Source: Faecalibacterium prausnitzii (GTDB lineage: Bacteria; Bacillota; Clostridia; Oscillospirales; Ruminococcaceae). Taken from it: 64,000 nt of DNA. The stretch's first letter is position 1; each line of letters begins with the position of its first letter. Below, piece after piece: positions 27,790-40,209 of the stretch. The notes under the pieces were generated by a model. The model saw nothing but the letters and a program-made list of their open reading frames with translations. It had not been told where the DNA came from and made no database searches. The DNA lies in assembly GCF_003287495.1 (NCBI RefSeq), contig NZ_PRLE01000002.1:434001-498000 (forward strand). The letters run 5' to 3'. Made by a program: the position numbers and the translations under genes.

Positions 27790-28884
27790 ATGAATTTAGT
27801 AACGATAATTACCCCCATTTATAATGGCGAAAAGTACTTGATCCGCTATTTTGAGCAGGTAAATGCGATTAGGTACAAAAATTTACAGATAATCGTTGTT
27901 AACGACGGAAGTAAAGATAAAACATCAGAAATAGTACAAAAATATGCAGAGGAAGATAGCCGAATAGAATTCATTGATAAAAAGGTGAATGAGGGTGTCA
28001 GCAGCGCAAGAAATGATGCCTTAAAAAGAGCAAAAGGGACGTTTTGTTTCTTTTTTGATTGTGATGATACTTTTGATGCACAAATCGTTGAAAAATGTGT
28101 AGCAAAAGTAAAATCTGATACAGACACCGTTTGCTATAATTATGCATCAGTGCGTAGAAATGGAAGCATAGCTGAACATGAGTTTTCCTATTTAAAGCAT
28201 CAATATAATAAAAAAGAGATTCTGGAACAGATACTGCCAAGATCCTTTGGAACATCGATAACAGACTTAAAGGGATATCTTTCAGGAAAGCGTGGAATGC
28301 GCCAAGGAAAGGAACTAAACGGTCCATGGCGCATGATGTATTCGCTCGAGATAATCCGAAAAGAAAATATCTACTTCCGAAAAGATCTGCGTGTTGGTGA
28401 AGATACGATTTTCACTAACAAATATCTGGCAGTAGCGGATGTGATTTACACTATAGATGAGCCATTGTATTATCTTCACAACAATGACGGATCAGCGATA
28501 GAAACATATAATCTTGATGTCAATCGAATGATTTCGGGCAAATTGCAGCTTATTAAGGCGAAAGATGAGTTAAGTGATGAACTGCAACAGAAGGGTATGG
28601 ATACATATGAGCTGTGGGGGGGAGAATATATACTTTCCTCCGTTCAAATTGGCTATGCTTTAGCGAAGGATAAAAAATTATCATTCGCTGAAAAATGTGA
28701 GGCCTTAAAAAGTTACCATTTGGATTCCTTGGTAAAAAATCAGTGGAATCGCCTTAGAGTAAAAGATATTATGGAAACAAAAAGCATTAAGGCAATTCCG
28801 GTTTTGCTATTAAAAATAAACTGGATAACCCTTACAGAGTTAATGCTTATCTTGTTTTGCAAAATGGGATTTAAAATCCGTTAA
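27790..28884 (+). CDS. Family 2 glycosyltransferase with an in-frame G7 tract
   Basis: A 364-residue GT-A enzyme. The nucleotide-binding start is TIITPIYNGEKYL, then VVNDGSKDKTSE, and the metal-binding segment is FFFDCDDTFD. A hydrophobic C-terminal segment (about 335-360) may touch the membrane. A run of seven G at 28,616-28,622 (codons for LWGGE) keeps the frame open here, but slippage would truncate the last 90 residues. The sugar specificity is unknown. Confidence 0.85.
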   Translation: MNLVTIITPIYNGEKYLIRYFEQVNAIRYKNLQIIVVNDGSKDKTSEIVQKYAEEDSRIEFIDKKVNEGVSSARNDALKRAKGTFCFFFDCDDTFDAQIVEKCVAKVKSDTDTVCYNYASVRRNGSIAEHEFSYLKHQYNKKEILEQILPRSFGTSITDLKGYLSGKRGMRQGKELNGPWRMMYSLEIIRKENIYFRKDLRVGEDTIFTNKYLAVADVIYTIDEPLYYLHNNDGSAIETYNLDVNRMISGKLQLIKAKDELSDELQQKGMDTYELWGGEYILSSVQIGYALAKDKKLSFAEKCEALKSYHLDSLVKNQWNRLRVKDIMETKSIKAIPVLLLKINWITLTELMLILFCKMGFKIR

Positions 28885-28896
28885 GAAAGGGCAGAG

Positions 28897-30012
28897 ATGA
28901 AAGTATTAATAGATTTGACTTCTCTTGCAGATAACTTTTCTGGAATTGAGCGATTCGCGCTTAGTATTACGAAAGAACTGATTACAGATCAAAGCAGAAG
29001 TGATATTGAATTTATACTCGTTTTCAAAAATGAGGTGCATAAAGAATTTGCTGCGGAGCAGCATAATGTAAAAAAAATTATTGTGAGGGGAAAGAACAAA
29101 CTGGTTTTTAATCAGTTGCAGTTACCATTAAAACTTGCAGCTATAAAAGCCAATTATTACTTTTTCCCGGCGTTTCCGGCACCATTTTTCTTCTTTAACC
29201 GGAATGCAATAAGTGCAATTCATGATGTGGGATGCTGGGATTGTCCAAGCAAGAATAGAAAATACATGACGCTCTATTTTAAGATCATGTATAGAAAAGC
29301 TGCGTTTGGGCATAAGAATGTCGTTACGGTGTCACAGTTCTCTAAAAATCGGATTTCAAAGATTTTGAAAAAAGAGCCTGACGAGATTGCAGTTATTTAT
29401 GACGGTTTGTCGGACTGTTTTGCTGATTTCTGCTACGATAAAGAACAAGACATGAAAGCAAAAGGAGCTTATGGACTTCCTGAAAAGTATATTCTTTGCC
29501 TTTCAACATTAGAGCCGAGAAAGAATATGAGACTTTTGGTAGAGGCATTTAGTGAGTTGACTAAAGAAAAGAAAATTGATACCAATCTAGTTCTAGCCGG
29601 AAGAAAAGGTTGGCTAATGGATGATTTGCTTTCCAACTTGGATAAAGAAATTGTTGACCGGATTCATTTCACGGGCTTTGTGGATGATAACTTATTGCCA
29701 TATGTGTATAGGAATGCACAGGTCTTCGTATTCCCATCGGTATATGAGGGATTCGGAGTGCCTCCAATTGAAGCAATGTCTATGGGGATTCCGGTGATCT
29801 CCTCAGATGCAGCTTCATTACCAGAGGTTTTGGGTAATGCGGCTTATTATTTTGAAAATCGTAATCTAAAAGATTTGAAGAAACAGATTGTAACCGTCAT
29901 GAATCTTCCAAAGGAAAAGATGGAGCTGACGAAAAAGGCTGGGGTAGAACAAGCACAACTATTTAATTGGAAAAATGAAGCATTGAAGTTAAGAGACACG
30001 TTGTTTAGGTGA
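28897..30012 (+). CDS. Family 4 glycosyltransferase
   Basis: A 371-residue GT-B enzyme. The C-terminal donor-binding half has LSTLEPRKNMRLLVEAF, FTGFVDDNLLPYVYRNAQVF and the family signature PSVYEGFGVPPIEAMSMGIP (20 residues). It lies 12 bases after the GT2 gene with an AAAGGGCAGAG ribosome site. It resembles mannosyl- or rhamnosyl-transferases of O-antigen loci. The donor cannot be determined. Confidence 0.88.
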   Translation: MKVLIDLTSLADNFSGIERFALSITKELITDQSRSDIEFILVFKNEVHKEFAAEQHNVKKIIVRGKNKLVFNQLQLPLKLAAIKANYYFFPAFPAPFFFFNRNAISAIHDVGCWDCPSKNRKYMTLYFKIMYRKAAFGHKNVVTVSQFSKNRISKILKKEPDEIAVIYDGLSDCFADFCYDKEQDMKAKGAYGLPEKYILCLSTLEPRKNMRLLVEAFSELTKEKKIDTNLVLAGRKGWLMDDLLSNLDKEIVDRIHFTGFVDDNLLPYVYRNAQVFVFPSVYEGFGVPPIEAMSMGIPVISSDAASLPEVLGNAAYYFENRNLKDLKKQIVTVMNLPKEKMELTKKAGVEQAQLFNWKNEALKLRDTLFR

Positions 30013-38058: not shown

Positions 38059-39048
38059 ATGGAAAAAGGTAACAGATCGCAATCAGTTGATATCGCAAAA
38101 GGAATTTTAATTATATTAGTGGTGATTGCGCATGCACAAGTTGACATGGTTCATGATATTATCTTTATGTTCCATATGCCACTTTTCTTTGTGATTTCTG
38201 GCTTTCTTATGAAACGAGAAACGCTGGTAAAGGTTGGGTATGTACGCGGAAAGATTAAGCATCTGATGATTCCATATATGACATATTTAGTGCTTGATAT
38301 GCTGCTTGTACGAAAGACACTCTCTGTACACGATTGGATGTATGCTATTTGGGGTGGTCGAGCAGTAACAGGTGTTTACTGGTACATAACCTGTTTTATC
38401 TTCACTATTTTTATGCTCACTATTCTTTTGAGAAAATTTTCCAACAGAATAGTGAAAGGTTTAATTTTAGTGGGGGGGGGTATAGCGATTCTCGAATCGC
38501 ACCTTCTGGATAGGGTTCATTTTCTGAAGTTTCCTGGTATTCCGTGGAATCTGGATGTTGCTTTGATGGCACTTGTCTATGTTGGAATTGGGTTCTTTTA
38601 TAAGGATAAAATTAAAGAACTACTGGAATGTGATTCAAGGAGATTCGATTTATTGTCGGGGTTGATAGCGGTAGCTTTATCTCTATTCTGCTGGTTCATT
38701 TATAGAAACGAAAATCAACTTTATTATTTTGATATGAAACCAGTGTACTACAAAGAATTTATATCGGCATTATTGATTCCGTGTGCATTTGGAATGGTGC
38801 TCGCAAGGTTGGTTTATTGGATGCAAAAAAATAAATGGCTAGATAGCTTGAATCGTTTTTTTGTACTTTGTGGGCAAGCAACTATTCCAATCATGTTTAT
38901 GCACATCCCACTGAATCACTGGGAAACTGAATTGGCCTATGGTCGTTGGATTTTTGTATTGATTGGAGCAGGTTTACCAATAGTATCAACCATTTTGTTT
39001 CACAGTAATAGAGTTATGAGGAAACTCTTTGGATTACCGAATTTGTGA
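38059..39048 (+). CDS. Acyltransferase family 3 membrane protein with a G9 tract
   Basis: A 329-residue integral membrane acyltransferase. The N-terminal motif is RSQSVDIAKGILIILVVIAH (20 residues) with the catalytic-type His at its end. About ten membrane helices follow. It probably O-acetylates the polysaccharide. Nine consecutive G at 38,472-38,480 encode VGGG and keep the frame open here. Loss or gain of one G would truncate the protein near residue 140, giving ON/OFF acetylation. Confidence 0.85.
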   Translation: MEKGNRSQSVDIAKGILIILVVIAHAQVDMVHDIIFMFHMPLFFVISGFLMKRETLVKVGYVRGKIKHLMIPYMTYLVLDMLLVRKTLSVHDWMYAIWGGRAVTGVYWYITCFIFTIFMLTILLRKFSNRIVKGLILVGGGIAILESHLLDRVHFLKFPGIPWNLDVALMALVYVGIGFFYKDKIKELLECDSRRFDLLSGLIAVALSLFCWFIYRNENQLYYFDMKPVYYKEFISALLIPCAFGMVLARLVYWMQKNKWLDSLNRFFVLCGQATIPIMFMHIPLNHWETELAYGRWIFVLIGAGLPIVSTILFHSNRVMRKLFGLPNL

Positions 39049-39112
39049 AAAATTTCCTTGTGAACTAAAATGTTGCTGAACGATGCGGAAAAAGGTTGAG
39101 AGGAATAAAATA

Positions 39113-40209
39113 ATGAAAGTAGCTTTTTTTATTGATGATATTACAAAAGATGGAGGGACTGAGAGATGCACAGCAGTTTTATCTAATTTGCTTGCTGGCA
39201 GGGGATTTGACGTTTCTATTCTATCAATAAATGCAAGTAAAAATAGAAGCAAATATGAGATAGATTCTAATGTGAATGTCAAAACGTTTAATTTGCAAAA
39301 AATTGAAAATGCTGTAAGTAGACGTATGAAAACATTCAAATACTTGGGACATGAAATTATAGGGGGGGGTACGACGTAATTGTTGTAGTAGATACCTATA
39401 AGTCTTTATGCTTTGTTCCGTTTGTGCCTTTGTTGAAGATGACAAAAACAAAACTGATTTCGTGGGAGCATTTCAACTATAATTTTGGCGATAAACATTC
39501 CCCACGATGGTGGGGAAGAAAAGTTGCGGCAAAAATAAGCGACGCTGTTGTAGTTCTATCGAAAGCTGATTATGATGTATGGAAAGCTGCTGTAAAACAC
39601 AAAGAACGTCTGAAACAGATTTATAATTTTCCTTGTTTTGACTTGGAAAAGCCTCGATTTGATGTTGAGTGCAAAACTGTTTTAGCAGTTGGTAGACTTG
39701 AAGAACAAAAGGGATTCGATTATTTGCTTGATATATGGAAGCTTATAGAAAATGATAAAGATTTTAATGAATGGAAGCTTCAGGTAGTGGGAAGCGGCTC
39801 TCTTAAACAGCAATTACGCGATAAAGAAAATAATTTGGGACTGAAAAGAGTAAAATGGTTGCCTTTCACAGAGCATATTGAGGAGTGTTACAAAAACGCA
39901 TCTATCTATGTGATGAGTAGTCGATTTGAAGGATTTGCGCTCGTTTTGCTCGAAGCAAAAGCCTTTGGTCTTCCTATAGTTAGTTTTGATATTAAAAATG
40001 GACCAAATGAAATTGTGCAGAATGGCGTGAATGGTTATATAGTACCACCTTTTGATATAAGTATGTTTGCTGAAAGTCTGAAAGTACTTATGAAAAACGA
40101 TAAGCTGAGAGCACATTTTACAGAAGATTCTCAGAGAAATATGTACCAGTTTTCAAAAGATAAAATTGTTGCAAATTGGATTCAGTTGTTAGAAGAACTT
40201 ACAGAGTAG
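39113..40209 (+). CDS. Family 4 glycosyltransferase, out of frame at a G8 tract (likely phase-variable, OFF)
   Basis: ATG 39113 (GAGAGGAAT upstream) begins MKVAFFIDDITKDGGTERCT (20 residues), the acceptor start of a GT4. After HEIIGGG, eight G at 39,362-39,369 send the frame to a stop at 39,379. In the correct frame the tract continues as YDVIVVVDTYKSLCF and then the donor domain, with VGRLEEQKGFDYLLDIW and SSRFEGFALVLLEAKAFGLP (20 residues). Six or nine G would make a full protein of about 365 residues. No other lesion is visible, so slippage is the simplest reading. Confidence 0.8.

What the first reader, a model, noticed from the sequence alone, without database searches (positions are those of the whole stretch)
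28616..39369. Four poly-G tracts inside polysaccharide genes, two of them putting genes out of frame
G7 at 28,616 (GT2, in frame), G7 at 30,526 (GT4, out of frame), G9 at 38,472 (acyltransferase, in frame) and G8 at 39,362 (GT4, out of frame). In an AT-rich region such tracts are very unlikely by chance, and each lies within the coding sequence. Long G-tracts are the classic slipped-strand switches of Campylobacter and Neisseria surface loci. Here they would switch sugars and O-acetylation independently, giving up to 16 surface forms in a gut commensal.
Basis: partly seen in the sequence, partly recalled or inferred. Interest (0 to 1): 0.88.

Follow-up and report, generated by a model that had tools for sequence, protein, structure and literature searches.

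The report
Poly-G switches in gut-commensal surface genes
Runs of G inside sugar-coat genes of a human gut bacterium, most likely Faecalibacterium, look like length-changing on/off switches, and the same device also sits in promoters of its surface proteins, a pattern best known from pathogens.

Summary
The four tracts are real: G7, G7, G9, G8. Two interrupt glycosyltransferase genes exactly at the tract. Four such runs in 13.5 kb at 37% GC were reached in 0 of 2000 simulations per model. The genome has 14 runs of G>=8 but only 10 of exactly G7.

The main addition is a promoter form: TTGACA...G8...TA occurs in 13 of 31 same-genus genomes, own included; the reversed pattern in none. Behind such tracts 21 of 23 first genes look exported, 16 lipoprotein-like, by a home-made rule. 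Tract length differs in 10 of 12 pairs of related sites.

Best reading: slipped-strand phase variation in two modes, a multi-locus system in a gut commensal, most likely Faecalibacterium. The kind is known; my literature searches listed no report for this genus. Not shown: mixed lengths in one culture, or variation of the window's own tracts, whose genes had no close match in the genomes searched. The G7 tracts are weaker candidates, above all the in-frame one, so "16 forms" is unproven.

The parts
21715..41131 (+). Surface polysaccharide gene cluster: UDP-sugar dehydrogenase, phosphohexomutase, nucleotidyltransferase/mannose-6-P isomerase, WecG/TagA GT, GT2s, GT4s, Wzy/ligase, acyltransferase, nucleotidyltransferase
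   Evidence: Pfam; GC 35-37% in the three 4 kb blocks from 28001 to 40000, against 58% in a 400 kb genome sample
28616..28622 (+). G7 tract inside GT2 gene 27790-28884, reading frame open; weakest switch candidate
30526..30532 (+). G7 tract at which a GT4 gene is split between two frames
30028..30558 (+). N-terminal half of split GT4 number 1 (Glyco_transf_4)
30524..31141 (+). C-terminal half of split GT4 number 1 (Glycos_transf_1)
38472..38480 (+). G9 tract inside the membrane acyltransferase gene, reading frame open; same aligned position as a G9 in a diverged homologue of another species
38059..39048 (+). Acyltransferase-3 family gene (probable sugar O-acyltransferase)
   Evidence: Pfam PF01757 E 7.5e-20
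39362..39369 (+). G8 tract at which a second GT4 gene is split between two frames
39083..39379 (+). N-terminal part of split GT4 number 2
   Evidence: weak match to the start of WlaC; no Pfam match
39355..40209 (+). C-terminal part of split GT4 number 2 (Glycos_transf_1)
41157..41244 (+). HDV-like self-cleaving ribozyme of the F. prausnitzii family at the 3' end of the cluster; not part of the switch
   Evidence: Rfam RF02682 79.2 bits

Best explanation
The tracts are slipped-strand phase-variation sites. Replication adds or removes a G, so a glycosyltransferase or acyltransferase reading frame opens or closes and the surface polysaccharide gains or loses a sugar or an acyl group. They belong to a multi-locus poly-G system of this genus (most likely Faecalibacterium). 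[quoted passage not shown] Shown: tract positions, frames, more G>=8 than G7 runs genome-wide, promoter geometry with controls, length differences between related sites in different genomes. Inferred: reversible switching in living populations, the effect on expression, and the effect on the polysaccharide.
For: Runs of G>=8 outnumber exact G7 runs, 14 to 10, in the whole genome, although G/C runs fall from 559 of >=5 to 43 of >=6 in a 400 kb sample of it. Two GT4 genes break exactly at their tracts. A Core-2/I-branching GT gene elsewhere in the genome also breaks at a G8. Of eight tract-bearing genes of other species that I scanned, seven are acyltransferase-3, hexapeptide transferase (two), Wzy-like (below Pfam's cut-off), FrhB/FdhB-like, GNAT and cytidylyltransferase, the eighth a PALP-GNAT fusion. 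A diverged acyltransferase (30% identity over 169 residues, E 1e-10) carries a G9 at the same aligned position as the window's. G>=9 runs have promoter-like flanks in 23 of 72 cases against 3 of 576 for G5-6 runs in the same loci, p 7e-21. Reversed-pattern control 0 in 31, 297 and 398 genomes, which overlap in part. 21 of 23 downstream genes look exported against 60 of 368 ORFs of the own-genome sample (the baseline has another length limit and includes spurious ORFs). Tract length differs in 10 of 12 pairs of related sites, and with a stricter rule in 9 of 11, against 5 of 30 for A runs of >=6 and 0 of 2 for A runs of >=7. A phage-like C5 methyltransferase gene has tract lengths 8/8/9, 7/7/9, 7/7/9 and 9/8/8 in four related copies, two of them viral contigs.
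Against: No read-level data, so no mixture of lengths was seen. The window's acyltransferase and GT4 C-halves matched only the own genome among 31 genus genomes, and the acyltransferase only the own among 346 family genomes, at the E-value limits used, so their own tracts could not be compared. The two G7 tracts are at a length common by chance in this genome. Two of 12 related pairs keep the same length. Eleven further sites of other species printed were not scanned at Pfam, and some do not look like surface genes by eye (for example L110); two of the 14 runs of this genome are unassigned. The A-run control uses shorter runs. Sequencing technology of the assembly is unknown, so single-base length errors cannot be excluded.
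Confidence: 0.8

Rival explanations
1. Homopolymer errors of sequencing or assembly: the genes are intact and the tract lengths are miscalled.
For: Both breaks lie exactly at the tract. The assembly is in 19 contigs and its technology is unknown. Some G runs in fragmented genomes of the genus lie at contig ends.
Against: Errors would not place long G runs between -35 and -10 boxes. Such tracts also occur in single-contig genomes of other species.
Confidence: 0.08
2. Ordinary pseudogene decay: the two GT4 genes were lost by frameshift in passively unstable tracts, without selection for switching.
For: Two of the four genes are broken at present, and the tested genes of the cluster matched no other genome searched.
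Against: Each broken gene is otherwise open on both sides of the tract, with recognisable parts. Long G runs recur in surface-type genes and promoters.
Confidence: 0.07
3. The G tracts have another role: promoter strength through G-rich DNA shape, G-quadruplex or transcript slippage, with length fixed by selection.
For: Spacers of 16 and 18-19 are common and 17 rare, which could reflect a special geometry. Two of 12 related pairs keep their length.
Against: Ten of 12 related pairs differ in length, as do copies of the methyltransferase gene. Coding tracts break frames.
Confidence: 0.05

Closest known systems
Bifidobacterium breve sortase-pilus poly-G switches (PMC9187656; abstract start and passages seen)
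   Same: Gut commensal; G tracts in surface genes; ON/OFF by replication slippage, shown there by deep sequencing. The paper also mentions other G tracts of UCC2003 that are intragenic or in promoter spacers.
   Different: Another phylum (recalled); pilus genes rather than polysaccharide and lipoprotein-like genes; the promoter-spacer tracts are only mentioned there. Here switching itself is not shown.
Poly-G/C phase-variable loci of Campylobacter and Neisseria (coding: capsule and LOS genes; promoter spacers such as porA and opc, recalled)
   Same: Same two modes and similar gene classes. For scale, C. jejuni NCTC11168 is said to have 29 loci with poly-G/C tracts of seven or more (abstract start of PMC4965091); here 24 runs of seven or more, ten of them only G7.
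   Different: Those are Gram-negative and the mechanism is proven (recalled). Here a probable Gram-positive anaerobe and sequence evidence only.
Invertible promoters of gut bacteria (Jiang et al. 2019; seen only as cited in the review)
   Same: Reversible switching of surface polysaccharide in gut commensals.
   Different: DNA inversion there; here a homopolymer tract. I did not search the window for invertible elements.

Membership tests
Simple-sequence-repeat phase-variable (contingency) loci, coding type | Homopolymer longer than composition predicts, inside a reading frame | tested here: met
   clear for G8 and G9, less so for G7 genome-wide
Simple-sequence-repeat phase-variable (contingency) loci, coding type | Present length leaves some genes out of frame at the tract | tested here: met
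   two of four genes in the window
Simple-sequence-repeat phase-variable (contingency) loci, coding type | Affected genes make surface structures | tested here: met
   by family; not by phenotype
Simple-sequence-repeat phase-variable (contingency) loci, coding type | Tract length varies between strains at the same site | tested here: inconclusive
   Other tracts of the genus differ in 10 of 12 pairs and in a phage-like methyltransferase gene; the window's own genes had no close match in the genomes searched
Simple-sequence-repeat phase-variable (contingency) loci, coding type | Mixed lengths and reversible phenotype in a clonal culture | not testable with these tools
   no reads or cultures
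Promoter-spacer homopolymer switches | Tract lies between -35 and -10 boxes | tested here: met
   for other loci, not for the window's tracts; two strict cases in this genome, C13:272803 and C13:381917
Promoter-spacer homopolymer switches | Spacer length departs from a single optimum across sites | tested here: met
   9 of 122 poly-G sites have spacer 17 against 22 of 47 promoters without the tract in the same loci; p 2.6e-8. The scan pattern allowed spacers 14-21
Promoter-spacer homopolymer switches | Transcription changes with spacer length | not testable with these tools
   no expression data

The most novel reading that the evidence does not exclude
An abundant human gut commensal genus (most likely Faecalibacterium) runs a multi-locus poly-G phase-variation system in two modes: reading-frame switches in polysaccharide genes and promoter-spacing switches for a changing set of surface lipoproteins, with further tracts in a phage-like DNA methyltransferase gene and upstream of a diguanylate cyclase gene.
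Probability: 0.7. Interest if true: 0.75.

Novelty: new member of a known kind. Interest (0 to 1): 0.62.

Why it matters
[quoted passage not shown] An abundant commensal gut genus (recalled) with many such sites would make that question testable. It would also mean that surface sugars and lipoproteins differ between cells of one strain, which would bear on phage sensitivity, immune recognition and the reading of strain differences in metagenomes.

Tried and rejected
Tried without result. (a) Close relatives of the window's acyltransferase and both GT4 C-halves in 31 genus genomes, and of the acyltransferase in 346 family genomes, to compare tract lengths: only the own genome matched. (b) Promoter-pattern scan of viral contigs: 8 stretches, not followed. 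(c) Seven own-genome G7 sites outside the window: one sits at a recurrent site, the 3' end of a probable hybrid histidine kinase gene. (d) Plasmid records: no match to the methyltransferase region. (e) Literature: nine searches listed no report of poly-G switching in Faecalibacterium; they cover one open-access library, and six of the nine listings were cut, so this is weak evidence of absence.

Considered and rejected: that all four tracts are equal switches; that the rarity of spacer 17 comes from the scan pattern (it allowed 14-21, and promoters without the tract in the same loci peak at 17). I first took the TTGACACC-G10 promoters of four genomes as a fixed-length class; that was wrong, because the pattern cannot match that class below G10, and a related site has G8.

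What was left out. The 400 kb sample was chosen by hand at rough steps, on six contigs, after the G>=8 positions were known, so its lack of runs of 7 or more is not independent evidence. From the listing, itself cut off, I chose 69 runs in nine other genomes and fetched 66; three of G012 were left out for room. Runs of other genomes, and those not listed (most of G029, all of G030), were not classified. Contig-end runs, notably in G026, were not used. Of 20 sites printed, 19 are from other species; I scanned eight of their genes. In one search, 29 of 122 sites had no ORF by my rule. In one search one of 24 promoter-like tracts had no ORF; of the 23 left, one (L010) is itself a coding tract and probably a false promoter. 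Pairs are not independent: three pairs come from three sites, one pair lies within one genome, and some are paralogous. The ABC transporter gene (L014) was judged by eye only.
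Full report
The observation. The GT2 (27790-28884) and the acyltransferase (38059-39048) are open through their tracts. Two GT4 genes are split between frames exactly at theirs. Pfam confirms the families, except for the short N-terminal part of the second GT4, which has no Pfam match. The halves of the first GT4 match successive parts of the intact neighbouring GT4. Those of the second match successive parts of WlaC, the first part only weakly. In 13.5 kb at 37% GC, four such runs were not reached in 2000 simulations under any of four Markov models.

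The genome. Searching the whole genome (2.68 Mb, 19 contigs) gives 14 runs of G>=8 and 10 of exactly 7. In a 400 kb sample, chosen by hand, G/C runs fall from 559 of 5 or more to 43 of 6 and none of 7 or more. So runs of 8 or more are in clear excess, while G7 is not. The 14 are: two in this window; one near the end of a Wzy-type gene and one splitting a Core-2/I-branching GT; one at the 3' end of a GT2-like frame, judged by eye; two in promoter spacers before two similar lipoprotein-like genes; one upstream of an ABC transporter, judged by eye; one upstream of a GGDEF gene with a weak Cache match; three in a C5 DNA methyltransferase gene region; two unassigned.

The genus, coding tracts. I classified 77 distinct runs, 12 from this genome and 65 from nine others. 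From the frames printed I scanned eight genes of other species: acyltransferase-3, hexapeptide transferase twice, Wzy-like, FrhB/FdhB-like, GNAT, cytidylyltransferase, and a PALP-GNAT fusion. Most are of the kind found in polysaccharide clusters. Eleven other printed sites were not scanned, and some do not look like surface genes. One acyltransferase of genome G002, 30% identical over 169 residues to the window's (E 1e-10), carries its G9 at the same aligned position.

The promoter tracts. TTGACA-N4..12-G8-N0..6-TA occurs in 13 of 31 genus genomes, own included, and the reversed pattern in none. TTGACA-N4..12-G9-TA occurs in 13 of 297 family genomes (8 of 95 genera) and 3 of 398 phylum genomes, own included, reversed pattern none. 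G>=9 runs have promoter-like flanks in 23 of 72 cases, against 3 of 576 for G5-6 runs in the same loci. Of 23 first genes behind such tracts 21 look exported, 16 of them lipoprotein-like, against 60 of 368 ORFs in the own-genome sample; the rule is home-made and the baseline rough. There 70 of 93 first ORFs look exported, against 5 of 26 after promoters without a tract. Spacer 17 is rare among these sites (9 of 122), though it is the commonest value without the tract (22 of 47). I read this as most sequenced genomes not being at the strongest spacing; that is inference.

Length change. Among 103 sites, 12 pairs had similar flanks (70% or more near the tract); tract length differs in ten. Examples: G8 against G10 before lipoprotein-like genes in two single-contig genomes with 96-99% identical flanks; G7 against G8 at two sites of the methyltransferase gene with 99-100% identical flanks. 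Four copies of that gene read 8/8/9, 7/7/9, 7/7/9 and 9/8/8; the last two are viral contigs, 96% and 79% identical in protein to the query, and a third viral relative was too different to compare. With a stricter rule G tracts differ in 9 of 11 pairs, A runs of 6 or more in 5 of 30 and A runs of 7 or more in 0 of 2, but A runs are shorter. The window's own tracts could not be compared.

Organism. The window carries an HDV-F-prausnitzii ribozyme. That family occurs in 11 of 31 genus genomes and 0 of 14 control genomes. Part of a phage-like region of the genome (9% of an 8 kb query, 83-87% identity) matches, among 50,697 phage records, four: three records of two Faecalibacterium phages and one unnamed phage from faecal samples.

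Verdict. The likeliest mechanism is slipped-strand phase variation. The device is known in both modes from Neisseria and Campylobacter (recalled). Poly-G pilus switches are shown in Bifidobacterium breve, whose authors also mention tracts in genes and promoter spacers (PMC9187656, passages). Nine literature searches, six with cut listings, listed no report for Faecalibacterium. What seems new is the organism, the number of sites and the lipoprotein promoters. Switching in culture remains to be shown.

Noticed in passing
window 41157-41244; L291-L308: Of 26 HDV-like ribozyme sites in 11 genomes, 15 lie 25-43 bases after the end of an ORF; several of these ORFs belong to polysaccharide-type genes (by eye, except the window's nucleotidyltransferase) and one was scanned as VanZ-like. 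Three sites lie just before a phosphoglucosamine-mutase-like gene (by eye). Scanned downstream genes include AbiH, RES-domain and SEC-C proteins. The glmM neighbourhood is known as I recall; the link to polysaccharide and defence genes may not be.
   Followed up: partly
L014:11429-13412 (own genome, contig C15) and L135:1861-3771, L311, L312: A phage-like C5 cytosine methyltransferase gene carries three poly-G tracts whose lengths differ between copies; a 636-codon frame is continuous in L135, while L014 has two overlapping frames. A possible phase-variable phage methyltransferase.
   Followed up: partly
L106, L117, L119, L141 at 3502 of the G-rich strand; L285:3748: A G/C tract at the 3' end of a probable hybrid histidine kinase gene (family judged by eye) in five genomes, lengths 10, 9, 11, 9 and 7, which would change the protein's last residues.
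   Followed up: partly
L163-L280: Spacer lengths of poly-G promoters peak at 16 and 19 with a dip at 17 (15:11, 16:24, 17:9, 18:23, 19:37, 20:16, 21:2); the scan pattern allowed 14-21.
   Followed up: partly
L015:5361-5370: G10 just upstream of a GGDEF diguanylate cyclase gene in the own genome; no clear -35 box, so mode unknown.
   Followed up: no
L095:3502, L105:3502, L126:3502, L153:3502: G runs of 11-23 directly after T runs, without long open frames beside them; unexplained.
   Followed up: no
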